64,000 nt of DNA from Cenococcum geophilum 1.58 (lineage: Eukaryota; Ascomycota; Dothideomycetes; Gloniales; Gloniaceae), in the NCBI GenBank assembly GCA_001692895.1, contig KV748176.1:2604001-2668000 (forward strand), written 5' to 3'. This document shows positions 1 through 64,000 of the stretch, one piece after another. A program made the translations under genes and the position numbers. Within the stretch, counting starts at the first letter, position 1. Each line of letters opens with the position of its first letter. The notes beneath the pieces were generated by a model. It worked only from the letters and a program-made list of their open reading frames with translations. It searched no databases and was not told the origin of the DNA.

Positions 1-3000
1 TTTGTGTAGTAGCCATACTTTATCTCCCTCCTTAAGATCTGGTCCCTTAGATCTCTTAGCATTATAGTACCTTTTTATTCTCTGCTATACTACCTTAGCT
101 GTCTCTATAAGGTCTGCATAAAGATTTATTAAATCCTTTATTCTTTCTTTGGCTATACTACTCGTTTTCTTTACTTACTATAGTAACAATGATATTCTTA
201 GCTTATATCCATAATTTGCCTTAAATAGTAATATGCCTATTCCTTCTTAAGGTGTTACATTATACGCAAACTATATAACTAGTAATAGCGATACCTAATT
301 GTTCTGTGTATGATTAACATAATGCCTTAGATACTGCTCTAGCGTTTAATTTAATCTTTCTATTTAACCGTCTGTCTATAAATAATATGCGGTGGAAGTT
401 GCTGCTTAAACTCCTTACTCTGCTAAGAACACTTCCCAGAATGCTGCTATAAATCTTAGATCTCTATCTAATATGATTTTGCTTAGTACTCTATATCTTA
501 TAAATACTTCTTTAACGTAGATTCTAGCGACATCTTCCGCTAAGATTTCTTCTGTATATACTATAAAGTATCCCCACTTTATAAGCTTATTTACTATTAC
601 TAAAATTACGTCATAATCTTATCCGGTGATAGGATCTTTTAATTTTGGCAACTTAATAATAAAGTCCTATAATATGACCTCCTATAGTCTCTCTAGTATT
701 TTAATAGGTTATAGCCCTCTATATAGCTTATGCCTCGTTAATTTATTCCTTTAGTAATTTAGACATTCCTTTATAATTTTTCTGGCTATCCTCTAGATTC
801 CGTTAATAATGTATTCCTTTTAAAGTCTTAACACTAAGCCCGTAGCCCCATTATGTCCTTAAGTTAGTCCCTTATAGAAGTCTTCCATAAACTACTCTGC
901 TATACTTCTTAGGATGTACTTTACTTTTTGATTTTTATACATATCCGTCTATAGATCTTTTAGCTATGCTTTTAGAATTCTTTATACCTAAAAGCTTTCT
1001 AGTATCTCGTAGACTTTCTCTAGTTCCTTATTTTCTTAAGTTGCTATAATTTTCGGATAATTATACCTAATTAATCTATCTATATCTTTTCGCAATAAAG
1101 CCCCCAATGGCTTTTCCTTATTTTATAGTTTAGCTTTACGGCTTAGAGCATCTGCCCGCATATTGTCTATACCTTTGGTATGCTAAATCTTAAAATAGTA
1201 TTCTGTAAGCATCTCTGCCCATCTAACCTATCTTTAGTTAAGTTCCTTTATTATTAGGAATCCTGTTAGGTTCTTATAATCCGTCTTAACTATAAATGGT
1301 TTCTCTATACCTTATAAGAATGCCCTTTATTCCTTTAATGCTGTAACTATACCTAATAACTCCTTGTTATAGATGTTATAGTTTAACTCTAGTGGTGTTA
1401 TCTTCCGACTATAGTATGCCACTGGGTGCTATCTATCTTAATATCTTTATATAAAGTACGCCCCTAGTATATAGTCTAATATATCTATCTTTACAACCGT
1501 CTCTAGTCCTAGTTAATAGATTTTAAGAACTGGCTCCTAGGTAAACAACTCTTTAACTTTCTTAAAGAGTTCTCTTTGCTCCTTTCCCTATGCCTATAGT
1601 TCTTCTTTCTTTATTAACCGCGTAAATGGCTTAATGTCCTTTAACTACTGCGCTATAAACCTTCTACAGTAATTGTAAAACCCTAGGAATAATCTTAACT
1701 ATATAACGTTCTCTAGTTCCTACCAATTTACTATAGCCTTAATCTTTTTTAGATCTATGCTAAGTTGGCCTAGTTTAATAATAAATCTAACAAAATCGGT
1801 CTTTCTGGTAAAGAACTCGTATTTCTTAATTGCTACTAGCATCTGTTCTTCCTATAGTCTCTTTAAGACCTATTTAATGTATTCCCCGTATTCTTCCTTA
1901 GTTATTAAGTAGATAATAATATTATTAAGATATACTATAATAAATTCATCTAAGTATTCTCCTAATATATTGTTAATACGTTTCTAGAACGTTACTAGTG
2001 CGTTTATAAGCCTAAATTGTATAACTAATAGTTTATATAGTCCTTCCTTTAACCTAAAGGCTACCTTCTATTTGTCGCCTTTCTTAATCCTAATCTAATG
2101 GTACGCCCATCTTAGATCTATTTTCGTAAAGATTTGCGCATTACCTATTCTGTCTTAGATTTCGCTAATTAAGGGTAAAGGATACCTATCCTTCCTGGTA
2201 ATGCTGTTTAACTATCTATAGTTAATATATAGCCTTAGTTTACTATTCTTCTTTAGTATAAATAGTACTGGATAACCTACTGATAACTGTGATGGTCTAA
2301 TATATCCCTTTTATAGATTTTTCTGGATAAACTCTTTTAACGCTCTACCTTCTTCTTTGGTAAGCTTGTAGATTGGAAAGAACTTTAAACTTATTATTAG
2401 TTCCAACTCTATCTTATAGTCCCATGCTGCATATTCTAACAGCTTTTTACTTTTTAGTGACTATAGTTTTTTACTATACTTATAGTATCTCTTTGGTATA
2501 TAACTTAGTCCTTTTTCTATTTCTTTATAGGTTGCTTCTACTTAGTACTATACTAACTTAGCTTATTGTCACATTTTGCGGCGTTAAGTATCTTTAATAT
2601 TGACCTAACCTGTAATCTAATTAATCCTTAGATTATATTTCTGTAACTAAGGCATATTTAATACTACCTCGTCCTGTCCTAATGGTAGGATATCGAAAGA
2701 TATCTTAATTTGTCTTCCTTTAATAGTTATTTAAATAGGTCCTATTTTAAGATTAATGATCCCTCCTCTATAGGTTATTAAATCCCCTAAAATCGTAACT
2801 AATAGGTAAGGTTACTCCTTTTGTCTATAAGGTAGTCCTATTCTCTTAACTACTATTAGTAAGATGTGGTTTTACGTTACTCTACTATCTATTAGCGCTT
2901 TAAACTGCTAATCTTGCCAATTAATTTATAAATTTAGGTATTGTCCTTAAATTCCTTTAAGGGTTTAAGGCTCTACTACTAGCTCCCTCTAGTCCTATAG

Positions 3001-5963
3001 GCCTCTACTTTTCCTAACTATTAGCTGCTTAATCCTGGTATACTTAGCTTACTCTTTAGCTAATGCCTAGTTTGCTTTTTATCTTTAATATACTATAGAT
3101 ATATATTTTCTGGGTATTTCCACCACTGTTATCTATCTAAGCATTCTTTTATAAGGAATCTTCCTGGTTAAAGTACTACGCTTCCTTCCTCTTAGACCTC
3201 TGCTAGATGCCATCTATATATATATTTAGCATTTCTATACTGTTGCTCGTCCGTTATCTAGTATATTCTTATAGGGTATTTCCAATTCTTTTCCTTTGGA
3301 TTCTTGTATATTTCGCATATATTGTCTATATACGCAATCTATAATAATGTATAGTATACTAGGTGCTTTAGGTTAACTTTTAGCTCGTCTTTGTCCCTAA
3401 GTTTAAACCTTTGTTGTGCTGATCTAAACGTTACGACTTTATTCGTAGGTACTAAGATGCGTCTTTTGCTTCTTTAGTCCTCTAAACGTTCCTTTAGATC
3501 CTTTAATGTTATAATTAAGGCTCCTTTAATATGCATTATAGCCTTTTCTATAATTGGGTGGTCTTGGATAACTTTTTCATCTAACCACATATAGAAATCT
3601 TCCCACTTATTATTATGCCTTTGCCTATACCACTTTTAGTACAGCTGCTAAAGTGTATACAGTCTGTCCGTAAGGAAGTATCTTCTTATTACTATATTAT
3701 AACAGCCCTTTATATGTCGTTCTTTAAACCTAGTTAAAATCCCTAGATCCTCTTTACTTTTTAGTTTAATAAGCTACTTAGCTCTTAGTATGCCTGCTCT
3801 CGGCCTATTAGTAATTCTTTATACTAGTGCTCTGTCCTTTATACGTCCTAATGTGTTAGATCTCTTATCTAGTTTCTATTCTTACTATGCGATAATTCTT
3901 TGCCTAAACTCTTCTATGGTTTTTTTTTGTTTATGCCTTACGCTCTAATTCTTAAAGTCGTCTTGCTTTTTAATCCTAGTATTAAACTTTTAATCTTTAG
4001 GCTGAATACTACGTTCCCCTAATAAGTCTTCTAGGTCTATATATCTGTCTCCTAGTCTAACTGCTATTTATATTATAGATTCTCTAATCTATAAAGAAGC
4101 TCCTTGCCTCTTACCTATAGGTGTCCTTATTTATACTCTAAAATCTTAGTCCCTTAGATTCTTTAATCCTGAGCTTGCTTTTAACTTAAGCTTAGCTCCC
4201 GCCTTAGTCTAACTAGGCGTCCATAGTGTTCTTATCTTATCTTAAGAGTCTTAAATCTCACTTATCTCGTTTTAAGAATCTTGTGCCGTGGGAAACTCTT
4301 ATCCCGAGCTTATTTATATATTTTTAAACTAAGCTACTACCCTGCTCTATCGGTTTTCGTCTATTATAGGTCCTTAGGTATACCTTATCTCGTCTTAAGA
4401 ATCTTAGTTGTCTCTTATCTTGTCTTAAGAATCTTAAGTCTTTAACCTTTTGCCTTTATTAAGTGCCGAAGTAGTTTGCTATCCTACTTCTCTTATATTT
4501 CGCGAAGCGATAGATATTATATTTAGTGGGGTCTCAATCCCTACTAATATTCCCTATTCTATAGTAGAATTATTCTTTACCTCTAGTATAACATCTCCAA
4601 GGTTTGCTTGCTCCTAGTAAGCGGCCCTTATTACCTTATTGTTATAAAATGTTTTACCTATATTAAATTTATTGTCCTTAATATCCAATCTGCGAACTAG
4701 TTCGTTGGTTCCTCTGTATTCTATAGGTGCTAGCTCTTATAGCTAATAGCTTGCGCCGTACTTAGCGTCCTTATAAATTTGGTATACGTTATTATAATAA
4801 AACGTAAAACTTTTAATTAAATATTCTTTTGTTCCTTGTAGTATATTATAATCCCTCTATACATATATATCGTCTACTAGTCTTATGCCTTTTACTACGT
4901 AGTAACTCTGCTCACTTCTATAGTCTCTAATATAATAACCCTATTTTCCGCAATTTATATAAGCTCCTTTTTTAAACCATTTCTCTTGCTATAGAGTCCG
5001 CCTAAATGTCTTCTACTATTAAGATCCCTAATTCGGCCTTTGCTCCTTAGACCTTTAATTACTTAATCCTTATCCTCTAGGTTTCTATAGTTTACTCTAT
5101 CTCTTATAGGCTTCTTTAGTACTACTTAGGTCTATTAGCTCTGCGCCATACTATAGTTTCTAACTTAGCTTTTGTTGTTGCGTACTCTGCGCCTTATATA
5201 ACTATAGAACTCTATCCTAGCCCTTCTTAGCCTGTTCCCTTTAGAAGATCCTATTATTAATCTTAATCGCTTAATCTATTAATTCCCTTAGGGTATCCAC
5301 ATCTTCTATTAGAATAATTACGTCCTAGACTTTAGCCTTAAGTCCCTGTTTATACTATGCTATAAGCGCCCTATTATTTTACTCTACTTATATTACTAGT
5401 GTCTGGAACTGTATTATATACTTAATTACTAAAGTTTGTTATACGAGGTTCTGGAGTTTTCTTTCCGCTATAGTTGTTCCTTCTAGGTCTCTAAATATCT
5501 GCGTAAGTTATTCCGCAAATCCTTCCTAACTTAAGAATATAAATTACACGTTTTAGTTAATGGTCGTTATTCTATTTGCCTATATCTCCGTAAGGTAAGG
5601 TTTAAACCACTTAAGTGCTTTTCCTAATAAGAATAGTCTTATATAGGCTATCCGATCCACAAGTATAGGTAACTTTACTCCCTTCTATAAGACCTTAAAG
5701 TGTATTTACGTAAGGAATCCTTTAAGCTTTAACCTCTCTCCTATAAATCTCTTAATTAATAGTAGCTTAATCTTTACTGCTTCTATCCCGTTAAGTCTTT
5801 CTTCTAATACTATATTATTAGCTATTAGCTAGTTAACTATTTCCTATAGCTATCCAACCGTTACAGGTTGCTGTGAGTTAGTATCTACTATACTGGTATT
5901 ACCTCCTGTCCTTAAAGTAGTTGCTACCGTTAATGGCGTTATGGTGGCTGCTTTTAGTGGCAT
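1..5963 (-). pseudogene. gag-pol polyprotein remnant of the Gypsy element
   Basis: Reading the minus strand through many in-frame stops gives: a gag-like start MPLKAATITPL at 5963; a capsid-like stretch ending KWFKPYLTEI near 5590; a retropepsin remnant ALIDS near 2890 (family consensus D-S/T-G); the reverse transcriptase hallmark FTKIDLRWAYH near 2130; a YLDD-box remnant YLNNIIIY near 1915; and the integrase C-terminal motif LKEGDKVWL in the first 45 bases. Domain order is that of Ty3/Gypsy. The gag-to-protease distance (about 3 kb) is long, so an extra domain or insertion could lie there; I did not recognise one. It encodes no functional protein. Confidence 0.85.
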
Positions 5964-6007
5964 GTTGTTTAACTTTTTATATTAATATTATAACTAGGTA
6001 GTAATTG

Positions 6008-6273
6008 TGTAACGGAACCTTGTAGCAAGAACTACGATAGGCTCGTTATTGGGCTAGGTGTGTAGGAAATGTAAGTATAAAAGTTAACAACGTAATAATA
6101 ATTGGTGGAGTAGTTGCCTAACAGATTAACTCTAATTATATTCTAAGAATTACTATAAGGAAGAAACTATCTAGGTAGGGACTAAGGGTCCTTAAATACA
6201 TAACCGTACTCCTATAAAATCCTTCTTATACGTAATGTACGTCTTATCTATATTAAACGTGACGTCCCTTACA
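6008..6273 (-). repeat. 5' LTR of the minus-strand Gypsy element
   Basis: On the plus strand the segment begins TGTAACGGAACC and ends CCCTTACA, giving TG...CA ends with imperfect inverted termini. It lies immediately upstream (on the minus strand) of the gag start. The second LTR is outside the window, so the outer edge at 6273 is inferred from the terminal motif only. Confidence 0.55.
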
Positions 6274-7246
6274 TTTAACGCAGCCAATACATTTAACTAT
6301 TATGTGACTCGCTTACTATTCCTCGTTATATGGTTCTACGGGTTCTATCCTAGTCCGTGCCTGTATTAACCAACTAGCTTCTTCCAACTCCTCTCTAAGT
6401 AGTCGTAACATCGTACTTAAAGCGTTTGTAACACGCAGCCTATAAGACGCTAGTACTAAAGTATCGCGTTTCTTCCTTATAAATAAAGCGAATAAGCGCG
6501 TCTACTTTATCTCCTAGAAAGCTATAATCCTATTCGGGTAATATCTGCTTAAGGCCCTTATAAGTTAGCGGAGGTTAAATATAGAGTATATGGATTTAAT
6601 TGTCGGATATAATATAACTAGAAATTAGACTCTAAACTGCATCCTAGTATATTATATTAAGCCATCCTTTAATCTACTTCTTAATACTTATAAATAGATC
6701 CTTTAAGTACTTACTCTTTATAATATTCCTAGTATATAATGCAATAATATTATACTCCTTATAAGCCTATAACAAATTATTATAATTAGAGTAACAGCGT
6801 AGACCTCTAGATAACGGACTCGTCTCCTTATATAGCTTAAGTAGAATATTGCGTAGACATCTAGTAGCTTTATTCGCAAGCTCGTACAATATATCTAGAA
6901 GTACCGCCCGTTTCTCTGTATTAGTCTTCGCCCTCTTTTATTTTTCTATATACTTAATCGGCAGGGCTAATAATATTATATTCTTATTAAGTATTTAATC
7001 CTCCTCCTCCTAAGTAGATACCTGCGAGATAATATTACTGTTAATTATAACAAATAAAGCCAGATTGCTGGCGAAATCCGCTGCCCTATCCTCCTATATC
7101 GCCATCCTAGCAGTAATAAAGTTACGGCCGAGTCGGGTAGACAGAGGGGCTATAGGTTTTTAAGACTTTCGCTTTAGCAGTGCAATATCTATAAGAGCGC
7201 CCTTATACTAGTCTTTAATAAGAATAATTGTATATCCGGTAACACC

Positions 7247-7497
7247 TGTCACGGGACTCACACGCTCTCACGTCCCTGCGCGTTTTGACGTTCTTGACCC
7301 GTGCTCACGTTCGTCCCGAGACACCTACGCACGTTCCCCTACAACCCCTATTTATACCCGACCTGGCACACAAAGAATCTTCTTTCTTCATCTAAATGTC
7401 TTTGTATCAACCACGCATAGTTACGCGTACGTAGCCTTCTTCCAATTACTACCCTGTTTAGTACATTGTATTCCAGCTCGTGCCCACTTCCGTGACA
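7247..7497 (+). repeat. Left LTR of non-autonomous element
   Basis: Starts TGTCACGGGACT and ends TTCCGTGACA. It matches 9147-9395 along its length with a few substitutions and short indels, for example GTATCAACC versus GTATTAACC. Confidence 0.9.
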
Positions 7498-7599
7498 CTA
7501 CATTTGGATCCCTTTTCTATACCTGCGGGGCCTGTGGGCTACTGGTCGCGGAGCATGCCTTTCTACGCCTAATACGAGGGTAGATACAGGAGCTGCTGG

Positions 7600-8680
7600 C
7601 TGCGGGTAGACTGGGACGCTGGGGTTCTGAACTGGTACGACAAGACATCGCGCCGATACGCCTGCGACCTCGATGGCTTGCACCCTACTGCTACCGATTT
7701 TGAACGAGCACGTTACTGCCCTCCGGTTTGACCTCAGATGGCTCGCATCCTACTGCACGACGACCCGAACCCGAACCCTGCGCTAGCATCGTACTGCTGT
7801 CCTACCAACCTGGCCCCGTTACTGCCGTACGAATCTGACAAGTTCCGCGCCGATACGCCTGTGGAATCACGACCTGCCGACAAGACATCGCGCCGATACG
7901 CCTGCGGACTCGATGGCTTGCATCCTACTGCTATTACGAACAGGCACGTTACTGCCCCTCGGTTTGACCTGATGGCTCGCATCCTACTGCTACACGAACA
8001 CGAACACGAACACGAACACGGAAGCTGGTATCTTACTACTGTCCTACCGACCTGCACGCACTGCCCTACGTACCGACAAGCCTTGTTGCGATACGCCTAC
8101 GAAGCCGAATCTGTCGCTGGCATTGTACTGCTACCTACCCGAACCGATAAGCCTCGTGCCGATACGCCTACAAGATAACCCGTCGCTGGCACCGTACCTG
8201 CTACCGTCCGAACTTGCTGCCGAAGCTCTCTGCATCTGATTACCCGAATTATCCTAAGCCGCCCGAACCTGTCGCTAGCATTGTACTGCCGCCGCCGAAG
8301 CTATTCGCATCCGATACCCAGACTGTCTTAAGCCGCCCGTCGCTCGCTTGCATGTACTGCTACCTGAACCGGACAAGCTCGTGCCGATACGCCTACAAGC
8401 CGAACACAACTAGGTAGAGCCTCGCTCCCTAGACCCCCAAACCCGTCGCTTGCATTGTACTGCTGCCTGAACCGGACAAGCCTTGTGCCGATACGCCTAC
8501 AAGATGCCCCGTCGCTAGCACTGTACTGCTACCACATGAACTGATAAGCTCCGTGCCGATTCGCCTATGGAACCCAAACACGTTGCTAGCACCGTACTGC
8601 TACCCGAATCTAATAAGATCCCGTGCCGATATACCTACGGAACCTACGCTGGCACCGTACTGCCACCGACAAGAACTACC
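7600..8680 (+). repeat. Degenerate internal tandem repeats of the LTR element
   Basis: Units of very roughly 70-110 bp recur many times with variation. Each couples a segment like GCCGATACGCCTACAAG to one like CGCTGGCACCGTACTGCTACC. Clear matching pairs are 7638-7695 with 7877-7932 and 7734-7756 with 7970-7992. A six-base microsatellite (CGAACA) occupies about 7993-8020. The array fills most of the element's interior. Confidence 0.75.
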
Positions 8681-9146
8681 TACGATACGAATACTGCACC
8701 GCACTAATAAGACCTACTAAGAATATGCCTTACTACGACCACGAACACCGTACTAACCCATACTATACTGCCGTTTAGGCCGATAAATACTGCCTAAAAC
8801 GGCCCATTTTGGACCAAAAATTGGGGTAATTTTTTAGGGGACCTGGAGTATAGGAAGGGAGGCGCGTGAGCTGCTAGAAGCGAGAAAGGGACTATACAAG
8901 CTTCAGCAATGCGTCTCCAAGCGGCGAGGACAGGAGTGTAGCTGGCGACGGAAGCTAGGCTATACTTTAGGCCTAACAAGTTAGTAGCCCAACAATTAAA
9001 TATAGAAGGACCGAACTGGAGGAGCCTGTGGCAACGGAGGACGTAGAAGGGCGGAGAAGCTAATAATTTTTTTTCCGTATTGGGTTTTTTTTTAGTATAT
9101 ATAACACGATATGCCTCGCAGGAGCTCGGAAGTAAGGGGGGGGTAC

Positions 9147-9395
9147 TGTTACGGGACTCACACGCTCTCACGTCCCTGCGCGTTTTGACGTTTCTTAACC
9201 CGTGCTCACGTTCGTCCCGAGACACCTACGCACGTTCCCCTACAAACCCCTATTTTACCCAACCTGGCACACAAAGATCTTCTTCTTTATCCAAATGTCT
9301 TTGTATTAACCACGCATAGTTACGCGTACGTAGCCTTCTTCAATTACTACCCTGTTTAGTACATTGTATTCTAGCTCGTGCCCACTTCCGTGACA
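9147..9395 (+). repeat. Right LTR of non-autonomous element
   Basis: Starts TGTTACGGGACT, directly after the polypurine tract, and ends TTCCGTGACA, followed by the duplicated ACACC. The first bases TGTTACGG versus TGTCACGG in the left copy are a C/T difference. Confidence 0.9.
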
Positions 9396-10870
9396 ACACC
9401 GTCGCGTCAGGCAGCCCGTCTGAATTACTGCAGTATTATATTTAGGCTTTTATTAGGATAATAACCGTATATAATAGAACGGACAATATCTAGAATATTC
9501 GCACTATGGGCTAGGGCGTCCGACGTAATAAGAATGCGGGTAGGTAAGTCTTCTATATAGAAATTTCGATACTCCCTACTCTTATTATATTTAAATAATA
9601 TTATATAATAACTCCGCACTACTATTTTAGCCTACTTTATAGTATAGCCCTTAGTTATAAGCTATAAACGGATTATATTCAGACACCTATGGATATAATT
9701 TTTAATATAAAGAAAGATAATTATCTTAGGAATTAATTTGGGGCTTAGAACCTTTCGTCCCTTTAGCTATATAGTGCCTTCTACCAGATTTTAGATCTGC
9801 CCAACTAGTTAATAAATAGAGGTAGCGGGTATTTAACTGGAAGATACAAATATCCTACTAGGCGCTATAGGCGTTTAACTAGATAATATAGATATTTCAC
9901 TAGACCTTGCGGATATCTAGCTAAGGGTTACGGATATATAATCCTCCTCTACTACCGCCTCCTTAAATGCCTCTTTAATAATAAAGAATAGTGCCTTATA
10001 ATTATTCTTATCCCTCCTCTTAATATAGCCCCTAATAATAGATAGGTCAGGCCGATTAATATTCATTTATTTAAGATCCGTTATACTCTAATAAAACCCC
10101 GCTAGCTTTATTACCTTCGTATATATCTCCTTATTAAGTATTACAGTATATATAAACCACGGCACTATTAAACTAAGCAGTAATTAGATCTTAAAGAGCT
10201 ATATATAATAGGGCTAGAAGCTCTTACCCTAGTTAGCAACTAGATAATACTTATTAATTATAACTAAGGAAATATACGAGCGAAAAGCAGGCTAAGTAAG
10301 GATATAGTAAAACCGTTTACTTAATAGCAACTCTAGCAATACTAGAATATGCGTAAACCAACCCGCCTTAATATGTTTTAGGATATCCGTATACGCTTTT
10401 ATTACCTCCGCATATATAAATACGGGATTTGCTCCTAGAATGGCCCGTATTTTTAATAGCTACTCCTCTCTAATTGCGTTTAAAGGCAACATAATAATAG
10501 CAACGGAAGCTTAAATTAGTAATAGAATCGCCTACATTATTATGCTCTTACCCTATAATATCTTTACCGCTAGGAACAAGTTCCTTTACCTATATATTAC
10601 CCGTCTTAATACCTTAATTTAACTAGGTCGTCCGCTGTACGGATATAAAAGCTTAATAGCTCTATCTATTAAGCTTAACTATTCATCTTTACTTACCTCC
10701 CGTAAGGCCAGAAGCTTATCTTACACGTCCTATAACTGCCTCTCTACTAGGGACATAAGATCCTCCCATAAACGATTATCTAGCTCCCACAAGCTCCGCG
10801 AGACCTCCTAGCATTCCCGTTTAACTGCGGTCTTCCGACCCCAGCAGCTAGTGCTTTTCTTCTGAGCCAT

Positions 10871-11371
10871 AGTGGGTTTTCTATGCGGATATAACGCCTA
10901 GCAGTAGTGGAGGCACTTTAGGCTAAGGGAGGATATTTTTAAGAAAGGACCTAACTATAGCACCTACTAAGTGTTGCAATGGCTTTAAGTAGTAGATATC
11001 TATATATCTGTATAGTTTTATCTATATTAGCAGACTATTCAATAAGATATAATATGTGCTTATACTTTTAATAACGCGTTTTTTAACTTTAACGAAATTA
11101 ATATTAGGACCGAGCGATAGCCGTATTATAAAATTCGTACCATTTAAAAGCCCTAGTTCTTAAAAATATTGTATTAACTTTTGGTAATAATAACGCGTTA
11201 TATAAATAAATGAATTAGATATCCGCAATATCCGTTTTGCGGATTTTGCTTATACTTTTAACAAAACTCGCCAAAGCCTCTCAGACGTGATTTTGCAATT
11301 CGGAAGACGGCGTAGGTTATTCTAATGCTAGCTAAAAAATCGCGTCTGAGCTCGCTGAGGTAAACTACAGC
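10871..11371 (-). other. Untranslated leader and outer end of helicase element copy A
   Basis: This non-coding stretch between the helicase start and the element edge aligns, in reverse complement, with 57615-58107 upstream of the second copy. Its outer edge reads (minus strand) TTACCTCAGCGAGCTCAGAC. An inverted repeat of about 15 bp, CTCAGACGCGATTTT against AAAATCACGTCTGAG, forms a subterminal hairpin in both copies. Beyond 11374 the two copies no longer match, which places the boundary there. Confidence 0.7.
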
Positions 11372-11417
11372 TAGCTAGCAGCTCGCTGCCTTAGTAATAA
11401 TATTTGGTAGTGAGTTG

Positions 11418-11649
11418 AAGCTTTTGGTAGAACTCCGTCCAGAGCTTTAGTAGAGCTCCGCCCAGAGCTTCGGTAGAGCTCTATGTAGGGTTTCGGTAGA
11501 GCTCTATGTAGGGTTTCGGTAGAGCTCTATGTGGAGTCTTAGCAGAGCTCCGTACAGAGCTTTAAGGGAGCCTCATAGAGCCTCTCTAGCAGAGCTCCTG
11601 GCAGAACCTTTAGTAGAGCTCCGTGCAGAGCCTCTAGTAAAGCTTTAGT
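11418..11649. repeat. Minisatellite, about ten units of roughly 23-24 bp
   Basis: The unit is approximately GTAGAGCTCCGTCCAGAGCTTTA, repeated with substitutions (GTAGAGCTCTATGTAGGGTTTCG twice in a row near 11473-11520). It lies directly outside the helicase element end. No function can be read from it. Confidence 0.8.
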
Positions 11650-11924
11650 AGCTAAGGAAATTGATTATAAAGTCTAGCTTTAAGCTAGAATTATTATAGA
11701 TTAGTAAATTCTTGGTTAAATACAGCACACGCCAAAACCGAGTCAGAGGCTCTACCAAAGGCTCTGCCAGCTATACCACTTGCCTAATTGGGACAGCTAG
11801 CTAACAGCGTGACAGTCAGTGGACAGCCAGCGATCCAATTGACGCAGTCAGTCAGCTATAAAGGCTGAAGCTCGCAGCTAGCTGGCTGTTGGACTCACTG
11901 GGCCGCTTGATGAGGATATGTAGG

Positions 11925-12096
11925 TGTCACGGAGCGCGGTCAGTAGGCTCTGGGAACGTCGTAGCATTGGCTATGTACACGACAGGATATTGCACGAAGG
12001 TGCAAAGAGGTGCGAAGGCACCGTGGCTCTATATACTGTGGGTGCCAAGGCTCGCTAGGCGAGCCCTTGGCGGTGCTACGGTCGGAATCCGTGACA
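11925..12096 (-). repeat. Left (3') LTR of the TRIM
   Basis: It contains a near-perfect palindrome at about 12047-12072, CCAAGGCTCGC against GCGAGCCCTTGG, that could form a stable hairpin. It is followed on the right by the polypurine tract of the minus-strand element. Confidence 0.88.
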
Positions 12097-12622
12097 CTAC
12101 CCCCCCCTCATACAAAGCCGAAGTCCCTTGAGGCAGATCCTCCCTCCGTACGGTGCTGTGGTGCTCGCTAGTGACTGGCAGAGCTTATCAGAGGCGTTCG
12201 CTGGCAGAACGTAGCTCGAACGGTTAACGAGGGTGATGACGATTCGATAGGTAGATTGATGACTCGATGTCTGAGGTATCTTATGACTGTTCTTCCAAGC
12301 TCGTTGAGTCGTAGATGACTGTTTGCAGTCCTAGGTCGAAGTAGTATCCTCACAGCGGGACAGCAGAGGTGCTGGTCTTGCTCGGTCGTGAGCGCACAGC
12401 GGGAAAGCGGAGATGCTGCTATTGGATAGGCATTGTCGAAGTTGTGTACGCAGGCAGGTAGAATCGTAGAGGCAGTAGTAGGCAGAGACGTTGATGCGGT
12501 AGAAATTGAGAGGTAGAATTAAGGGTATCGAATCGTCGTCCAACGGTCGGCACGGGTCAAAGTCGTCGTACCGGCTCCATAGGCGGTAGGCAGGCCTATG
12601 CGAGTCGTTGGGTGCAATATAA

Positions 12623-12794
12623 TGTCACGGAGCGCGGTCAGGAGGCTCTGGGAACGTCGTAGCATTGGCTATGTACACGACAGGATATTGCACGAAGGTG
12701 CAAAGAGGTGCGAAGGCACCGTGGCTCTATATACTGTGGGTGCCAAGGCTCGCTAGGCGAGCCCTTGGCGGTGCTACGGTCGGAATCCGTGACA
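12623..12794 (-). repeat. Right (5') LTR of the TRIM
   Basis: Identical to the left LTR apart from one seen substitution and carries the same palindrome near 12745-12770. The duplicated GTAGG follows directly. Confidence 0.88.
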
Positions 12795-16180: not shown

Positions 16181-16294
16181 TTACCTCAGCTTACCTCAGC
16201 AAGCTCAGACCGTAGAATCAATTAGCGGACATACGTATATCCGCAAGCGGATATCGCTAACCTTTTTTGTTAAAAAGTTGATTCTATGGTCTGA
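16181..16294. repeat. TTACCTCAGC duplication plus hairpin resembling helicase-element ends
   Basis: TTACCTCAGC occurs twice in tandem (16181-16200) and runs into AAGCTCAGACC, close to the outer end of the helicase element (TTACCTCAGCGAGCTCAGAC). Next, TCAGACCGTAGAATCAA (16205-16221) is repeated inverted as TTGATTCTATGGTCTGA (16278-16294), enclosing a smaller GCGGATAT-type hairpin. Layout, outer motif then subterminal hairpin, matches the helicase element although the inner sequences differ. Confidence 0.6.
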
Positions 16295-22066: not shown

Positions 22067-23680
22067 CAGTACCACGTCAAAAGTGTCCGTGCCGAGGTCA
22101 CGCCAAAAATGACACTTTTTGCCAAAATGCTATATAAAAGTTACATAATTAATTCTAGAGCTTAAAAAAACATCTAAAGCTACTTATAGATATATAATCT
22201 AGTAATCGCGATACTTTTTTAGTATTTAAAATCTATAGTCCTTTGTTAAAAGCCTCTAGGTTTTACCGCCTTCCTATTAAAACTTACTATACTTAGTATA
22301 TATTTTCTATTAGAGGTCAGCAAAGACAGCAAGACAGAGAAAGGAGCCAAAGTAGAACACGCAAGAACGCCGGGAAACCATCTACCGCAATGCAATACTG
22401 GTTGGACCAACGCTGGAGAGGCGAATGGGAGTCGAAGGTATAGAGGCTGACTTAGGCAAGACGAACCCAAGCCATAGCATAGTCAACGCCATGGGGGGTA
22501 AATACCTAAGGGCTCCGAGAAGGCCTAACAAAGGCAGAAAATATAATAGCAACACTCTTAAGAATAGGAATAATAGGACTAAAAGATTGGCTTTACTGGG
22601 TGGGTGTCCTAGTAGGTAGCCTAAGATATGAATGTGGCTGGCCAAAACAGACACTAAAACACGTAATACTGCTATACCCCCTACGCACCAATTAAGAAAT
22701 AATACTCTCAGCAGCTGGCATAGAGAACTATAATACACTGCTCTTAATATAAAAAGGCCTTAAGGCGGTCACCTAGTGGCTTATTAGTTAAAATGTGCTA
22801 AATTAGTTCCAGGTTGCAAGGGAAATAGTAATAAAAGGCAAGGGGGCAAGTAATAGGTGCCCCCTAGTAACTCTACAGTAGTAGAGTAATAGTTTATAAT
22901 ACTAGCGCGTCCGTAGGCTTGTTACGGCAGCAGTGGTTCCTAAGGAGATTAAANAGTAAGGTAGTAGAGCACTATAGGCGACTTGTAGGCGCTAAGTAGG
23001 CGAGTCCTAAAAGGCGGGGAGATGGATCACGGGGTTTTCTCATTTTTCTTAAATAGAGTTTTCTCCCTATATGTAAATAAGGAGTAGTCCGCGTGGGCCC
23101 AATAGGGATCTAAATTGGACGTTAAGCAATGAATTATTATTATATATTTTCTATTACTAGATATTAAAAATATTTCTTAAAAATTTAATATCTTATAGAA
23201 ATTTGCTTTTACTAAAACTCTCTCTACTTTAATTTTTATTTAAAAAGTATAAAAAATTGTTATAAGGTTATAGACTTAAAAAAGAGTAAAAAAATGCAAT
23301 TTCCCATACAAATTTGAAAAANTAAGGGTTTAAAGGGTTATAATAAACTTTCATACTTTTAAAATAAAATTTTAAATAAAAAAAGTTATAGTAAAAGTGA
23401 ATATCTGTAATATATTAAATTTTTAAAAATTAATTTTAATATTTAGTAGTAGAAAATATAGATTATAGATTATAGATTTTAGTAAAGAATTAATAGAATT
23501 TCTAAAGGAGTTATAGGTTTTAAATTTCAAAAAAGGGTATAATAGCTAGATTTTATATATAATATAAACTTAAAATATTTTTTATAGCTTTAGAATTAAT
23601 TATGTGGTTATTATATGGTAATTTAGCAAGGTGGGTTGTCTAAAAAAGGCGCTCGCACGGAGACTTTTGACGAGGGACTG
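22067..23680. mobile_element. Tc1/mariner-like non-autonomous element with long inverted repeats
   Basis: The ends are CAGTACCACGTCAAAAGTG (left) and the inverse of CAGTCCCTCGTCAAAAGTC (right), each bordered by TA (22065-22066 and 23681-23682), the mariner-type target. The inverted arms are long: 22067-22312 continuing at 23157-23260 on the left, and about 23345-23680 on the right, roughly 340 bp, aligned with many transitions. The left arm is interrupted by a truncated LINE. No transposase frame lies between the arms. Confidence 0.78.
22313..23140 (+). mobile_element. 5'-truncated Tad-like LINE, copy 1
   Basis: The insertion lies between 16-bp target duplications TATATATTTTCTATTA (22297-22312 and 23141-23156) and ends in an ATT-rich tail, as expected for non-LTR retrotransposition. 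Reading through stops, the plus strand gives the end of the Tad-clade ORF2 protein: GIIGLKDWLYW, a cysteine-histidine remnant ECGWPKQTLKHVILLYPL (C-x-W...H pattern of the ORF2 C-terminal knuckle), then ENYNTLL. The coding part ends near 22830 and about 300 bases of 3' untranslated sequence follow, also found at 41180-41464. This copy is less mutated than copy 2. Confidence 0.85.
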
Positions 23681-23747
23681 TAACGTAATCCACCCCCAAG
23701 CTGGCCACCCAACCCAAAACGCGGCGCGTTACTTAGCTACTGCGTCA

Positions 23748-24380
23748 ATGGCTACACCACAACAACAAGAAGCCCTTTTTCGAGAGGGCAGAATTAATCT
23801 AGCTATTTAGGCGCACAAGTAGGGCCAAATTCCAAGTTTCCGAGCAGCTATTACTACCTACGATGTGCCCTAAAGCACCGCCTAACTACGCGTTAAAGGC
23901 ATCAAATTAAAACGCGATTCTATACCCAAAAATTAACTCCTTGCACTCGTACAAGAAGAGGCTCTTAAGTAGTAGATTTTATTAATAGATTAACGCGGTA
24001 TACTGCCCTAGATTGCAACTATAGGGTAGATAGGTGCTATTCTAGCTACCTAAAACGTATTACTAGCTACTTTATAACCTATTAGTAAGAATTAGATATA
24101 GAAATATATTAACCACTATAATAGCCTAAAATTGTAGTTTAATTGCAAGTATAACTACTAGTATATTAAGTGCGAAGATCCTATACTTATTCGAGCTTAG
24201 TTTAAGCGCGTTTAAGATATAAAGATTTAATACGGCATTCTTAATAAAGATATTTAGAATTTTAATAAAATCGGCTTCTAAATAGGCGTTATTATAACTA
24301 TAAAAGTTATTATAGGAACTAATAGGGCTAGCTAGCCTTAAATAATATAGCTAGGCAATTAAGAGTGGGTTATTGACCTA
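23748..24380 (+). pseudogene. pogo/Fot1-type transposase, N-terminal half
   Basis: Start codon at 23748 (MATPQQQEALFREGRINLA). Reading through RIP stops, the expected Fot1 order appears: an HTH region with the ITTYDVP core, the CENPB-type HTH with LLALVQEEALK and GILP, then NFNKIGF (family consensus N-F-D-E-T-G-F, first catalytic Asp lost) and a GN-EWV stretch. After about 24375 the frame no longer matches the family. The missing C-terminal part is found in the same orientation at 42960-43450, so this is probably one transposase gene split by later insertions. Inactive. Confidence 0.8.
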
Positions 24381-24474
24381 AGGTACGAGTGGTCTATATT
24401 TTTGGGTCCTAGAATTCAAACTTTGCTAAGCTAGCTTCTAATTGGTTAGAAACAAAACCACGCGCGGTAAGTTA

Positions 24475-26450: not shown

Positions 26451-26451
26451 A

Positions 26452-27088
26452 TAGCCTAATAATTAAGTACTAGTCTATAAGTTCCTTTAGCGTCTATATA
26501 GTAGTAAAAACTAGTAGTACGGCTCGCTACAGGTCTAGGGTAAGCTTATTAAATAGGTCTAGCATTAAATCTTCCTAGGGAATTTAAGCCTAGCCGGCTA
26601 AGTGCAGAAAGCGGGTTTAAAAGGCTAAGAAAGTCTCTATCGTTTTTATATTTAGGCTTTTATAATTAAGTTAGGCGTTTTATACTTTAAAGGGGTCCTT
26701 ATAAATAGAAGATAGGTAAATAATTATCTCTTTTTTAGAGAGGAAGGAATCTACTAAGTCCTATACATATTACGGACATAGGTGCGTCTATATATCCCCG
26801 CTGGTACAGCTAAAGACATAGGCTACTTTAGCCTAAGTAACAGGGAAGTAGTCTATATTAACTTTAAGCTTATTCTATAATTAAAGCTTCTAATTATTAA
26901 ATATAGGGTTGGTTCTATCTATAAGCAATAAGGGGTCTATATCCTTCGCGGACCATAACATACTAATACTATATATTAGGCTAGGGCATTAAGGACTATA
27001 GCAAGTCTCTAGGTATTTAATAACTCTTTACTAGGTATAGGGGATTCTCTAGCTTTAAGCAGCTCTTAAAGTTATTTAATTTCGGTAT
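26452..27088 (-). mobile_element. Gypsy-3, gag fragment (left half, split by Gypsy-1)
   Basis: In reverse complement this stretch matches the gag of Gypsy-2 (33600-34230), for example ATTTATAAGGACCCCTTTAA. The match ends at about 26452. It stops at the GGTAT target duplication of Gypsy-1 (27084-27088) and resumes at 39124 on the other side. Confidence 0.85.
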
Positions 27089-27298
27089 TGTAACGGCGCT
27101 ATTGCACGTTACCTACCAAATTCTGCCATATTCTGCCAACCTATAATTGGCTTGCCCAAAGCTAGCGCCTTGGCGGCTTGCCCTATATATTTGTTTACAT
27201 TAGTTCTAGTAACCCCTTTTCCTTCTCCTTAGCTTAGTATCTTTATAATACAGCATTCTACAAGCTTCGGTTTAGAGGCATTTGTATAAGCCGTGATA
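27089..27298 (+). repeat. 5' LTR of Gypsy-1
   Basis: Begins TGTAACGGCGCTATTGCACG and ends AAGCCGTGATA where the 3' copy reads AAGCCGTAACA. The two LTRs otherwise align throughout with scattered C/T and G/A differences. Confidence 0.9.
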
Positions 27299-27528
27299 TT
27301 ATACTAGCTTACCCTACTTTACCTAGAAAGGCCTTAATAATATCCCACCCTAAAGAAACTTCGTCTGCAACAACGCATTAATATACTATACTTAAACATT
27401 AAAATAACTTTATATTACCTAGGAAGGCCTAGATAATATCCCACCTTATAAGCTAAATAGGACTAGACCTATACCCCTAGAATTAAAACCAAAGCGTATA
27501 ATACTAATAAACCTTAGGAAGCTAATAA

Positions 27529-32760: not shown

Positions 32761-33058
32761 TTTTCTACTATATTCTGCCATTTTCTGCCAGTACCGTAAA
32801 ACTTTAGATGTCTAGGAACTTCGATCGCCGGTTAAAGTTATTTAATTAGTTAGATCCTTACTAAGACTTTTAGCGGCTACTTTTCCTAGCCTAGTGCTTT
32901 TACTTAACCCACAGTCGCCTTTTTAGTACTTAGTCCGGACGTACTTATATCTTCTTTCCTCCTTATCTTATATTTTGTAATCTTACGTTTTATAAGCCTA
33001 GTGCTATTATATTTCTAACTAAGCCTAAGGGCAGGCTCTCTTTTAAAGAGGGGGGTAA

Positions 33059-38680: not shown

Positions 38681-38732
38681 CATAATATGGACTATAAAGC
38701 CTAAGGGCAGGCTTTTACGGAGGGGGGGGTAA

Positions 38733-38933: not shown

Positions 38934-38938
38934 TTACC

Positions 38939-57614: not shown

Positions 57615-59049
57615 TTACCTCAGCGAGCTCAGACGCGATTTTTTAGCTAGCATCGGAATAACCTACGCCGTCTTCCGAATTGCAAAATCACGTCTAAGAG
57701 GGTTTGGCGAGATTTGTTAAAATTCTAAGTAAAATCCATAAAACGGAGATTACGGATATCTAATTTATTTATTTATATAACGCGTTATTATTAAACCCTA
57801 TAGTTACTTTTTTTTTAAAAACTTAGGGCTTTTAAATAGTATAAATTTTATTATACGGCTACTACTTAGTCTTAATATTAATTTTATTAAAGTTAAAAAA
57901 CACGTTATTAAAAGCCTAAGTATATATTATATCTTATTAAATAGTTTACTAATATAGATAAAACTATACAGATATATAGATATTTATTACTTAAAGCTAT
58001 TATAACACCTAGTAGGTGCTATAGTTAGGTTCTTTCTTAAAAATATTCTCCCTTGGCCTAAAGTGCCTCTATTACTATTAGACGCTATATCCGTATAGAA
58101 AACTACTATAGCTTAGAAAAAAATACTAGTTATTAGGGTTAGAAGACTATAATTAAATAAGAACGCTAGTAGGTCTTACGGAGCTTATAGGAGCTAGATA
58201 ATTATATATAGGAGGATTTTATATCCCTAGTAGAGAGGCAGTTATAGGATATATAAGATAAGCTTCTGGCCTTATAGGAGGTAAGTAAGAATAAATAGTT
58301 AAGCGCAATAGATAGAGCTATTAAGCTTCTATATCCGTATAGCGGATAACCTAGTTAAATTAAGGTATTAAGACGGGTAATATATAGGCAGAGGGACTTA
58401 TTTTTAGCGGTAAAGATATTATAGGGTAAGAGTATAATAATATAGGCGATTTTATTACTAGTTTAAGCTTCTATTACTATTATTATATTACCTCTAAATA
58501 TAATTAGAGAGGAGTAGCTATTAAAGATATAGGCCATTCTAAGAGTAAATCCCGTATTTATATATGTGGAGGTAATAAAAGCGTATATAGATATTTTAAA
58601 ATATATTAAGGCGGGTCTGTTTATATATATTCTAGTATTGCTAAAGTTGCTATTAAGTAAACGGTTCCACTATACCCTTACTTAGCCCGCTTTTTACTTA
58701 TATATTTTCTTAATTATAATTAATAAGTATTATCTAGTTGCTAACTAGGGTGAAAGCTTCTGGCCTTATTACGCACAGCTCTTTAAGGTTTAATTACTAC
58801 TTAGTCTAATAGTGCCGTGGTTTATATATACTATAATACTTAATAAGGAGATATATATAAAGGTAATAAAGCTAGTAGGGTTTTATTAAAGTATAACAGA
58901 TCTTAAATAAATAGATATTAATTGGCCCGACCTATTTATTATTAGGGGCTATATTAAGAGGAGGGATAAGAATAATTATAAGGTACTATTTTTTGTTATT
59001 AAAGAGGTATTTAAAAAATAGTAGTAGAGGAGGATTATATATCTATAAC

Positions 59050-59249
59050 TGTCGGTATCACCCAGGGGGTACTGCAATTGCAATATATGGTAACTGGTTC
59101 TTTGATTTATTCGTGTCTGTCCTTCGCAGAGGATCGTAAGGATCGCAGTGCCTAAATAGGGGGGGGTTGATGAGTCACCATAAGGATAACTAATTAGGGA
59201 CACATAACTACGCAACCTGTCCATACATTCCAATATATACATTCCAACA
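59050..59249 (-). repeat. LTR of gag-only element (left)
   Basis: Begins TGTCGGTATCACCCAGGG and ends ATTCCAACA. It matches 61451-61650 throughout without indels. Confidence 0.92.
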
Positions 59250-59354
59250 CTGGCGACATTTACAAAAAGGGAAAGAAGGTAAGAAAGTATAAAGGAGAAG
59301 TATATAGGTCAACAGGTACTCAGGGCAGGAATCGCGGATATCTTAGGTGTTGTA

Positions 59355-59432
59355 GGCGTTGCGGATATTGTTACGGATATTGCGGATATCGCTGCGGATA
59401 TTGCGGATATTACGGATATCGTAAATATTGCG
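59355..59432. repeat. Short tandem repeat of GCGGATATT type
   Basis: About eight copies of a 9-base unit (GCGGATATT, TACGGATAT and variants) lie after the gag stop inside the gag-only element. Confidence 0.75.
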
Positions 59433-59467
59433 GAAGGTGTTGTAGGAGTATCTAAGTATCTATAGTC

Positions 59468-61162
59468 CTATCCGTCGTCGTTGAAATGATAGTTAAGGAA
59501 GTCGATATTAAGAGTAAGGTTCTTAGATTTTATACTACCAGGTTCCGTACCACCAGGTTCCGTACCACCAGTAAGGCTATAGGTAAAGGCATTGTTATTT
59601 ATAGACATGACCATATTCTTAGCGGTTTCAATTGGTATTAGTCCATTTAAAGTCATAAAGTGTTTAACACCATAGTCGTCATAGAAGAAATTACCGCTAG
59701 TGATAGTTGGAACTATGTCCTTGTCAAAGTCGTCGTTAATATTATTGTCCGCAAGGTACTGGTGGACACGTCTCTTAAATCCTTCTCTTACTTCGTCACA
59801 TTCTTCTTTAGTGTGCTTAGTTAACTAATAGTCTCCTTTCTTACACACGAAGCACGTCCTAGCATTATTGCCGTAATGATTATTTAATAAACTTGGTCGG
59901 GATATCGGTTAGTAATAGTAACGGTTAATAAAAAACACGTCCGTAGGCTGTTCTATAGGCTATAAGAACATATTAGTAGGTTATCTTATAGTACCATTAA
60001 TCTTCTTATAAGTGATAATTAATAATCGTAGGCTGTTTATAAGGCTAGTAAGTATAGTAGGTGGGTTCGAGCAAGCTACCTAGTAAGCAGCAACGTCTTA
60101 ACAAGCGACGATGAGCTTATTATGTAGGAAATTGTTATTATAGAGGTTAGCGTTAAAACCATACTATAAATAACGGAGGTTGTTAAGCAGTAGCTATAGG
60201 CAGTCCTCTATAGACTTGCCCTTACTCTTTATTATTACTATCTTAAGAGTTATAGCGTTCTACTTTATTAGAACTCCACACTTATATTTTAGTCCTTTAA
60301 AGTAGTTGCGTATAGCGTTATAGATGCTATTAAAGGTGGTATAGGTTGCCTTATTCTTATAGTAGAAGTTAAAAGTAATACTATATAGCATTGTTGGAAA
60401 GCCTTTAATCTTTGCCTTTTGTGGTATACCAACTCTATTACAAAGGTCGTTAAAAATCGTAAGCTTACGGTCAAAGTTATTATCCTCTTCGCTATATTTA
60501 CTTTCCTCTATGTATATCTTTACCAGGGTTGCTAAGTCTCTACCGTAGTTAATAGTGGCTATAACTTTTATAGAAGGAGCTGCGGCGTTTATAGAGGAAG
60601 CTGTAACATTTGTAGAGAGAGCTGTAGCGTTCGTAGGGGGAGCCGTGACGTTCGTTAGGGGAGCCATAACGTTCGTAGGTAAGGGGGGCTCGGCCGTAGG
60701 GAGGTCATTTAAAATAGCTAGGGTTAAGGTAGGTGACGTTAAGGGGGTTAATAAACGTAATTTAAAACGGCGGTTAATAACGTATAAATTAAAGGGTCCT
60801 TTATTATTGATATATAGCTTAATTTCTTCATCTAACCATTCCGTAGGGTTGTCCTCGTGGGCGATATTATACAGTGCTTATAGTACTGACTTACTCTTTT
60901 TGTTAAAGACCCATACTCCATTACATTGGAGTAGTTATTTAAGTTCCTTAATTACGGACCTATAAGCGTCCTTAAATATCTATACCTTAAAATTGTTAAA
61001 GTCCTCTTAGTATAATTCCTATAAGCTTTTATCCTTAAAGTTGCGCTTAGTATACTTATTAATTTTAAAGTTAATATAGTTAGTGATATCTTTTGCGGTA
61101 GTCTTATTGGTTAGGGTAATCCTATTGCCCTAGTCCGGACGTTAAATTCCTATATTGGACAT
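59468..61162 (-). pseudogene. Gag protein with zinc knuckle of the Copia-type element
   Basis: Read through stops from 61162 (MSNIGI) the minus strand gives about 565 codons. The part 60667-60260 is open, with the repeat N-(V/A)-(T/A)-A-P/S near its start. SIYNAIRNYFKGLKYKCGVL and the following LRYLQYGFN-type region match the gag of fungal Copia elements, and a zinc knuckle CFVCKKGDY...HTKEEC lies near 59820-59875. The C-terminal segment ends in TGGTEPGGTEPGS and a stop at 59468. Family naming rests on the gag pattern; no pol is present to confirm it. Confidence 0.68.
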
Positions 61163-61450
61163 AATTGACTAGCGTAGATCGTGGTGTAGGTCGTAGTGTA
61201 GGTAGGGGTGCTGCTGACGCTGCTGGGTGTACTGGCGCTCAGTAAAGAGGTCGTACTGGGTATTAATTTGCGTGGTGGACGCGAACCGAACAAAGCCTTA
61301 GCAGGAGTCGGTTCTTTGAGTTCCCAGGGCCTATGTAGGAAGGGTTCTCCTTAGCAAACGCGACGAGATTAACGGGCCTTAGTAGGAGCGATCGCGTATT
61401 ATCTCTCTTCGTAATAACACCGGATTCTAATCTGTGATATCACTAATCAG

Positions 61451-61650
61451 TGTCGGTATCACCCGGGGGGTACTGCAATTGCAATATATGGTAACTGGTT
61501 CTTTAATTTATTCGTGTCTATCCTTCGCAGAGGATCGTAAGGATCGCAGTGCCTAAATAGGGGGGGGTTGATGAGTTACTATAAGGATGACTAATTAGGG
61601 ACATACAACTACGCAACCTGTCTATATATTCCAATATATACATTCTAACA
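61451..61650 (-). repeat. LTR of gag-only element (right)
   Basis: Begins TGTCGGTATCACCCGGGG and ends ATTCTAACA. Directly followed by the duplicated ATAAC. Confidence 0.92.
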
Positions 61651-62619
61651 ATAACCTTTAGCTAAATATCCGTAGGGTCTAAAGAAATATCTATATTATT
61701 TAGCTAAACGCCTATAGTACCTAGTAGAATATCCGCTACCTCTATTTATTAATTAGTTAGGCGGATCTAAAATTTAATAAAAGGTACTATATAGCTAAAG
61801 AGATGGAAGGTTTTAAGTCCCAAATTAATTCCTAAGATAATTATCTTTCTTTATACTAAAAATTATATCTATAAGTATATAAATACTATCTATTTATAGC
61901 TTATAACTAAGGGCTATACTATAAAGTAGGCTAAAATAGCAGTATGGAGTTATTATATAATATTATCTAAATCTAACAAGAGTAGGGAGTATCGAAATTT
62001 CTATATAGAAGACTTACTTACCTATATTCTTATTATGTTAGACGCCCTAGCCTATAGTATAGATATTTTAGATATTATCCGTTCTATTATATATAGTTAC
62101 TATTCTAATAAAAGCCTAAATATAATACTATAGTAATTTAGATAGGCTATTTAACGCAATAGTATTACTGGATATATAATTATCCTTATTAAAGACTAGT
62201 ATAAGGGTGCTTTTATAAATATTATACCGCTAAAGTGAAAGTCTTAAAAACCTATAGCCTCTTTGTCTACCCGACTTAGTTATAACTTTATTACTACTAG
62301 GATAGTAATATAGGAGGATAGGGTAACGGATTTCGCTAGCGATCTGGCTTTATTTATTATAATTAATAGTAATATTATCTTATAGGTATCTGCTTAGGAG
62401 GAAAAGGATTAAATACTTAATAAGAATATAATATTATTAGCCCTGCTAATTAAGAATATAGAAAAATAGAAAAGGGTAAAGACTAATATAGAGAAATAGG
62501 TGGTACTTTTAGATATATTATACGAGCTTATAAATAAAGCTACTAAATATCTATATAATATTTTACTTAAGCCGTATAAGGAGACGAGTCCATTATTTAA
62601 AGGTCTATACTATTACTTT

Positions 62620-63075
62620 TGTTAGTCACACAGGGTGACTCACCAATAACGACTACTCGAGTAGGGTTACAGTGATGTTGGTTAATAAAGCTTTTTGATT
62701 AGAATGAGGAAGGGCGAGGAGCTTAAGGCTCCTCGCCACGCTAGTGCCGCGGCGACACGTGACGACCGCTTGCCTCATTCCCGACACTAGCAACTCTTCT
62801 TTTATGGTTGCCCTCTATATATAAATACTGCTTGACTATCATAACAAATATGGATCCTTTTTACTTACTATTGCCATTGTAATATAAGTCTCGCTGTCCT
62901 AAAATTTGCCTCTTAGCACGTGGTGCTTTCTTGCTAAGGAGTCGTGGGTAGACATCATATTAGGGCCGTCAGGGCCGCTAAGGCGCTAGCTATAAGCGAG
63001 CCAATAGCGATTTTCCATGCTGGGCATGGAAAATCCTAATTGGCTGGTTAAAATTAGGGTCTATAGAGCGTTATA
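62620..63075 (-). repeat. 3' LTR of the Copia element
   Basis: Begins TGTTAGTCACACAGGGTGAC; the inner edge GAGCGTTATA is inferred from the polypurine tract (AAAAGGGAGTAAGAG on the minus strand) next to it. It contains a perfect palindrome GATTTTCCATGC/GCATGGAAAATC near 63011-63038 and a TGCCTCATTCC region that lacks RIP. Confidence 0.65.
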
Positions 63076-63089
63076 CTCTTACTCCCTTT

Positions 63090-64000
63090 TAACCTAACCT
63101 TTAACTTATACACGTAAAGTATTTGTATTAACAAACGTTTCTAGAGCCTTATTTAGGTTTGCCTTTATTATTACATCTACTAGGTTATCTTAACCGTTAA
63201 TCCATCAAATCTTAAAGAGTTCTCGCCGTTTGTAGGATTAATAAAGTGCTATAATATCAATTATAAGGCGCTTCTCCTTTATAGTACTAAGCTTAACTAA
63301 GCACTTATAGAGGGAGTATAAGTTGGTATATACGATTATAGGGATAACGGGAAGTTTAAGTTAATCTGTAATTATCTTTAGGGTAGTTCCAATTATAATT
63401 GCTATATTAACTCCGCCAACTATTCTATATATCTCTAACACTAGAACGTTTTAAGTAACGCGCTTACTCTTAATTAAGCTCTAATAAATAAGATTGCCGT
63501 GGATTATAAAGTTATTCTCTTTGGTAGATTTGTTTATAATAATAATCTTATATCCTAGCTAGGAGCTAAAATCTTTATTATTTATAAACGATCTATTAAT
63601 AAATATAAAGAGCTTAGTGGTAGGAAGATTAATAGGTACGTAGAGTAGTCCCTAGTCGAGATAGTTTATTTACTAAAAGAAACGCTTATTTAGGGCAAGG
63701 ACGTTATCCTTAGTTAGTTCCTAGTGTTAAGCGGCAATAAAGAGATTAAATAAAGCCTTAGGTTAATAGATAGAAGTAATATAAGCTTCATAAGCGCGTT
63801 ACTCTACGTATCCTTATTTTGGAGAATTAACGTTAATAACGTTAATCTTCTTGCCTTAACCCTTTTGGTATAAAGCAATGGAATCCTCATTTAGGGAGAG
63901 AATATATCTATTAAAGAGTAATGGTGTTATTAAATTAAGCTTTTCCTTTAGCTTTGCTATAAGATTTGCCTTTACTAGCTTATCTTCTTTAAGAGCTAAG
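63090..64000 (-). pseudogene. Copia pol C-terminal part (reverse transcriptase end/RNase H)
   Basis: Minus-strand reading with stops ignored ends KIWWING...NLVDVIIKANLNKALE (63215-63155) and FVNTNTLRV...KGWVKRE (to about 63090). This matches the W-I-x-G...x-A-D-x-x-T-K...V-E-G-W-V-K-R tail of fungal Copia RNase H. Sequence to 64000 continues the same frame region with many TAG/TAA stops. Inactive here. Confidence 0.72.

What the first reader, a model, noticed from the sequence alone, without database searches (positions are those of the whole stretch)
6316..11374. Helicase-bearing mobile element with conserved outer end, two inverted copies
Two long copies (A, minus, 6316-11371; B, plus, 57615-62619) share a roughly 500-base leader, a subterminal hairpin and the same outer edge TTACCTCAGCGAGCTCAGAC, beyond which similarity stops. 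Their only recognisable gene is a two-domain SF2 (RecQ/DEAD-like) helicase. No transposase, recombinase, Rep or reverse transcriptase is visible, so either the helicase element is mobilised by something unusual or it is a displaced subtelomeric TLH-type gene. Both copies are flanked by ordinary single-copy genes on one side.
Basis: partly seen in the sequence, partly recalled or inferred. Interest (0 to 1): 0.82.

Follow-up and report, generated by a model that had tools for sequence, protein, structure and literature searches.

The report
Decayed helicase-carrying DNA transposon (AcademH type)
The two copies are pieces of a 12-kilobase cut-and-paste DNA transposon of a filamentous fungus that carries both a helicase gene and, in a part lying outside the window, a transposase-like gene; it looks like a member of a kind already described, inactivated by mutation in the copies examined.

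Summary
The two copies (A, minus, left end at 11363; B, plus, left end at 57615) are left portions of a 12.09-kb DNA transposon. In three full-length copies elsewhere in the genome the outer edge TTACCTCAGCGAGCTCAGAC is one arm of a 20-bp terminal inverted repeat, and 17 of 19 paired copies carry a 9-bp target duplication (0 of 342 mismatched pairings). Copy A spans 31.7 kb with nested insertions and has an 8/9 duplication. The helicase (RecQ-like SF2) occupies element positions 503-4036; the gene missing from the window is on the opposite strand at the right end and matches Pfam DUF6589 (E 2e-42). A homologue's model resembles P-element and Hermes DDE transposases. Helicase plus 9-10-bp duplications is the published signature of AcademH (passage read). 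The copies show RIP-type decay (955 transitions to 3 transversions in one pair) and are dispersed: 2 of 30 left ends lie within 50 kb of a contig end. Known kind; the DUF6589 link may be new (no paper of the held library contains the word).

The parts
11344..11363 (-). Copy A: left terminal inverted repeat (20 bp, exact)
   Evidence: same 20-mer inverted at the right end of full-length copies
11364..11372 (.). Copy A: target-site duplication ACTACAGCT (partner ACTGCAGCT outside the window, 8/9)
9395..11363 (-). Copy A: element positions 1-1969 (leader plus first part of helicase gene)
9392..10870 (-). Copy A: helicase, residues 1-486 of homologue P0006, with in-frame stops
7247..9395 (.). LTR element nested in copy A (LTRs about 7246-7497 and 9146-9395, 5-bp duplication ACACC)
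6433..7246 (-). Copy A: element positions 1964-2777 (helicase, residues 484-754 of P0006); similarity stops at 6433, element resumes outside the window
57615..57634 (+). Copy B: left terminal inverted repeat (20 bp, exact)
57615..59043 (+). Copy B: element positions 1-1431
58116..59018 (+). Copy B: helicase, residues 4-304 of P0006, with in-frame stops
59050..61650 (.). LTR element nested in copy B (LTRs 59050-59249 and 61451-61650, 5-bp duplication ATAAC)
61654..62617 (+). Copy B: element positions 1436-2420 (helicase, residues 338-631 of P0006 at 61723-62604)
62618..64000 (.). Second interruption of copy B, running past the window; element positions 2419-3044 resume 6.2 kb on

Best explanation
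A and B are the left parts of copies of a 12.09-kb TIR DNA transposon of the AcademH type. Anatomy (shown): 20-bp TIRs; a ~500-bp leader; on one strand a RecQ-like SF2 helicase gene (element 503-4036); in the middle a tandemly duplicated ~1.95-kb stretch of unknown content; on the opposite strand, at the right end, a DUF6589 gene (element about 10944-9112, probably with more of it upstream in another frame). Mechanism (inferred): the DUF6589 protein is a DDE transposase that binds the TIRs and perhaps the subterminal inverted repeats, excises the element and joins it to target DNA with a 9-bp stagger, giving the 9-bp duplications; the helicase assists by unwinding ends or helping repair or replicate the gapped product. 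The step the helicase performs is not shown by anything here. Short copies (1.57-1.93 kb) that keep both ends but no match to either gene, four of five with 9-bp duplications, were probably moved in trans. RIP-type mutation then inactivated the copies, and LTR elements nested into them.
Confidence: 0.85

Rival explanations
1. Subtelomeric TLH-type RecQ helicase gene family, duplicated by recombination between chromosome ends and displaced inward.
For: RecQ-like helicase, RIP-decayed and repeated, as in subtelomeric RecQ repeats of Stagonospora and Zymoseptoria (PMC3017866, PMC4522978, passages read).
Against: 2 of 30 left ends within 50 kb of a contig end; TIRs at both ends and 9-bp duplications in 17 of 19; transposase-like gene on board.
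Confidence: 0.03
2. A Mutator-like (MULE) transposon that captured a helicase: 9-bp duplications and TIRs are also MULE-like (recalled).
Against: Pfam gives DUF6589 and no MULE domain; P element and Hermes match better.
Confidence: 0.05
3. A DUF6589 transposon superfamily of its own, with a helicase gained independently of AcademH.
For: DUF6589 has no assigned function in Pfam and no paper in the held library contains the word; helicase and transposase lie on opposite strands.
Against: Helicase plus 9-10-bp duplication plus fungal host is how AcademH is described.
Confidence: 0.1

Closest known systems
AcademH lineage of Academ DNA transposons (Kojima 2020; paper not held, known here from passages in PMC10045372 and PMC10799480)
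   Same: Helicase encoded in a DDE DNA transposon; 9-10-bp target duplications; fungi including Ascomycota.
   Different: High copy number against 'low-copy' in PMC10799480; helicase and transposase on opposite strands (arrangement in AcademH not seen by me); Academ descent of the transposase untested.
KolobokH
   Same: RecQ helicase with a DDE transposase; fungi (PMC9587614, passage read).
   Different: Helicase is downstream of the transposase domain there; Kolobok duplications are TTAA (recalled), here 9 bp of varied sequence.
Telomere-linked / subtelomeric RecQ helicases (TLH) of fungi
   Same: RecQ-like helicase, amplified, RIP-decayed.
   Different: Location, TIRs, target duplications and a transposase-like gene.
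Helitron
   Same: Mobile element with a helicase; subterminal hairpin.
   Different: Helitrons lack TIRs and target duplications and use a Rep/PIF1 protein (recalled); here TIRs, duplications, an SF2 helicase and a DDE-like protein.

Membership tests
AcademH | 9- or 10-bp target-site duplications | tested here: met
   17 of 19 paired copies at >=8/9, best length 9; definition from PMC10045372 passage
AcademH | Encodes an SF2 helicase | tested here: met
   P0006 (DEAD + Helicase_C) aligns to element 503-4036 in three of three full-length copies
AcademH | Encodes a DDD/E transposase | tested here: met
AcademH | Transposase falls in the Academ clade | not testable with these tools
   No Academ reference sequence held; AcademH paper not held
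AcademH | Terminal inverted repeats (recalled as a feature) | tested here: met
   20-bp TIRs, 19/20 in three full-length copies
KolobokH | TTAA target duplication (recalled) | tested here: not met
   9-bp duplications of varied sequence
[quoted passage not shown]
   Helicase and DUF6589 genes lie on opposite strands at opposite ends
MULE | MULE transposase domain | tested here: not met
   Pfam finds DUF6589 alone in the element's right-end frame at E<=1; in 5 of 5 longer homologues DUF6589 and no MULE domain, two of them with a weak Zn_SUZ12 match (0.032, 0.024)
TLH subtelomeric helicase | Copies at chromosome ends | tested here: not met
   2 of 30 left ends within 50 kb of a contig end, median 600 kb
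Helitron | No TIRs and no target duplication (recalled) | tested here: not met
   TIRs and 9-bp duplications

The most novel reading that the evidence does not exclude
DUF6589, a fungal protein family without assigned function, is a DDE transposase lineage of its own, distinct from Academ, that travels with a RecQ-like helicase encoded on the opposite strand; elements of this kind would also be a source of the amplified RecQ genes that fungal genomics calls telomere-linked.
Probability: 0.12. Interest if true: 0.55.

Novelty: new member of a known kind. Interest (0 to 1): 0.33.

Why it matters
It shows that the apparent paradox (a helicase element without a transposase) came from nested insertions and a window edge, and it gives precise ends, duplications and gene content for a large helicase-carrying transposon family in a repeat-rich fungus. 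It also gives a testable identity to Pfam DUF6589: a DDE transposase. That would let annotators recognise such elements, and would help separate mobile RecQ genes from telomere-linked ones.

Tried and rejected
Subtelomeric TLH origin, Helitron, KolobokH and MULE were considered and set aside for the reasons in the membership table. Pfam on six frames of the middle region (L036:4600-9401, stops as X) gave only a chance-level Img2 match (0.045); the duplicated middle stretch stays unidentified. The left-end hairpin is not significant by energy. Foldseek alone gave no match at E<=0.001 in PDB or BFVD; its first PDB row is an unrelated channel protein (4.5e-2), Hermes and P element follow at ranks 2, 3 and 5; the best BFVD row is a hAT-like protein of a pandoravirus (9.8e-3). 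A genome-wide count of DUF6589 genes could not be made (tool unreachable). Paper searches with little use: DUF6589 with transpos (0 papers), Academ with several terms (120 papers, 20 listed), Academ with Cenococcum (314 papers, mostly 'academic' or similar by the listing), AcademH alone (7 papers), TLH terms (84 papers, 12 listed), Academ phrases (12 papers). Passages looked at without bearing on the verdict: PMC12730594, PMC12210899, PMC8290104, PMC10294476. The right end of copy B was not found, so its duplication is untested. The output was cut; I used the parts shown.

Full report
What was checked. Self-comparison of the window finds the two inverted copies at 86-88% identity. The window lies at 2604001-2668000 of contig C1 of a 177-Mb, 162-contig genome. 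Its size fits Cenococcum geophilum (178 Mbp mapped; PMC11799279, passages read), an ectomycorrhizal ascomycete, but the host identity is an inference and was not tested.

Ends. A 571-base query across the left end gave 42 matches (40 of 469 candidates scored, so a lower bound). Apart from copy A itself, 40 of 41 begin at query positions 52-58, i.e. at TTACCTCAGCG. Twenty-one of the 42 run to the query's end (569-571), 20 stop at 524-539, one is a fragment. A 400-base right-end query gave 41 matches, the query's own place included (40 of 368 candidates scored); 40 of 41 reach the last base. Three copies were read through: 12,090, 12,081 and 12,093 bp, with 20-bp TIRs matching at 19 of 20.

Target duplications. 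For 19 copies whose two ends I paired, 17 have identical flanks at 8 or 9 of 9 positions, best at length 9; 342 mismatched pairings gave none, best 6 of 9. Copy A is one of the 17 (ACTGCAGCT / ACTACAGCT). The two failures are C20, where the pairing is doubtful, and C48, a nested head-to-head pair.

What happened to the copies in the window. Copy A runs from window 11363 to contig position 2583699, 31.7 kb. It holds an LTR element (7247-9395, duplication ACACC). Element similarity stops at window 6433, and window 1-6432 has no further match to the element; the stretch between the window's left end and contig position 2593599 was not read. Further on, element 5301-7482 and 7462-12090 are found, separated by a 3.1-kb insertion (L060 10000-7819 and 4707-100). 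Copy B holds an LTR element (59050-61650, duplication ATAAC) and a 6.2-kb interruption from 62618, after which element positions 2419-3044 resume. Its right end was not reached.

Genes. The helicase: in the three full-length copies a 1173-aa homologue, P0006, aligns from residue 4 to 1173 over element 503-4036 at 65-67% identity in one frame. P0006 carries DEAD and Helicase_C domains; the element's own frame matches RecQ5 chains in the PDB at 1.3e-7. In the window, copy A holds residues 1-754 of it and copy B 4-304 and 338-631. The transposase: on the opposite strand at the right end, a frame of one full-length copy matches Pfam DUF6589 at 2e-42 with stops read as X. P0001 aligns at 71-73% over element about 10809-9112 in three of three full copies. 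A profile search lists 114 DUF6589 relatives (the 7995 best candidates were scored); those shown with an organism name are fungal. Between the two genes lies a ~1.95-kb stretch repeated in tandem, whose parts are 73-81% alike, without a Pfam match beyond chance.

Decay. The three full copies differ by 955:3, 1032:3 and 1035:2 transitions to transversions, with C-to-T changes most frequent before A (174 of 359 such sites with constant context) and the mirror pattern for G-to-A (206 of 342 after T); TpA/ApT is 1.5-1.6 in the element against 0.73-0.97 in two G+C-richer stretches of the window. This is the mark of repeat-induced point mutation (recalled).

Short copies. Five copies of 1.57-1.93 kb keep 467-470 bp of the left end and about 320-400 bp of the right end; their interiors do not match the full-length element, and the one stretch I printed (C30) is a minisatellite. 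Four of the five have 9-bp duplications. They are best read as non-autonomous derivatives moved by the full element's proteins (inference).

Position. Of the 30 left ends for which contig lengths were listed, 2 lie within 50 kb of a contig end and the median distance is 600 kb. This goes against a subtelomeric family; telomere repeats were not searched for.

Comparison with the literature. PMC10045372 states that AcademH makes 9- or 10-bp duplications and AcademX 3 or 4, and links the difference to helicase versus nuclease (passage read). PMC10799480 describes AcademH as low-copy in Basidiomycota, Ascomycota and Mucoromycota (passages read). [quoted passage not shown] The original AcademH paper is not held. 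The word DUF6589 occurs in no paper of the library, which is not proof that the link is unpublished.

Verdict. An AcademH-type transposon is the best reading (0.85). What the helicase does in transposition is unknown here. What would be new, if confirmed, is the identity of DUF6589 as the transposase and the high copy number with short derivatives.

Noticed in passing
window 16191-16210 (+): A third TIR-like 20-mer (1 mismatch) preceded by a partial tandem copy; similar doubled ends occur in L001-L004, which look like sister families sharing the TIR but mostly not the interior (L004 is 64% like element 10551-11131).
   Followed up: partly
window 11925-12794: A short LTR element with 172-bp LTRs (99% identical) and duplication GTAGG, 0.87 kb in all.
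   Followed up: no
window 11423-11644: A minisatellite of the GAGCTC / AGAGCTTCGGT kind just outside copy A, similar by eye to the interior of a short non-autonomous copy; copy A may have inserted next to or into such a copy.
   Followed up: no
window 22336-41464: Further repeats (22336-23116 with 40695-41464, 31377-32748 with 37315-38688, 26465-27082 inverted with 33600-34218) in an A+T-rich block; TpA/ApT is 1.83 over 24001-43000.
   Followed up: no
C48:750190-751131 of the genome: Two copies head-to-head one base apart, one apparently inserted in the leader of the other, without a clean 9-bp duplication.
   Followed up: partly
full-length copy on C124 (L036), element positions about 4817-8738: A ~1.95-kb tandem duplication inside the element; the translated frames show a cysteine-containing stretch that may bind zinc, seen by eye only.
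   Followed up: partly
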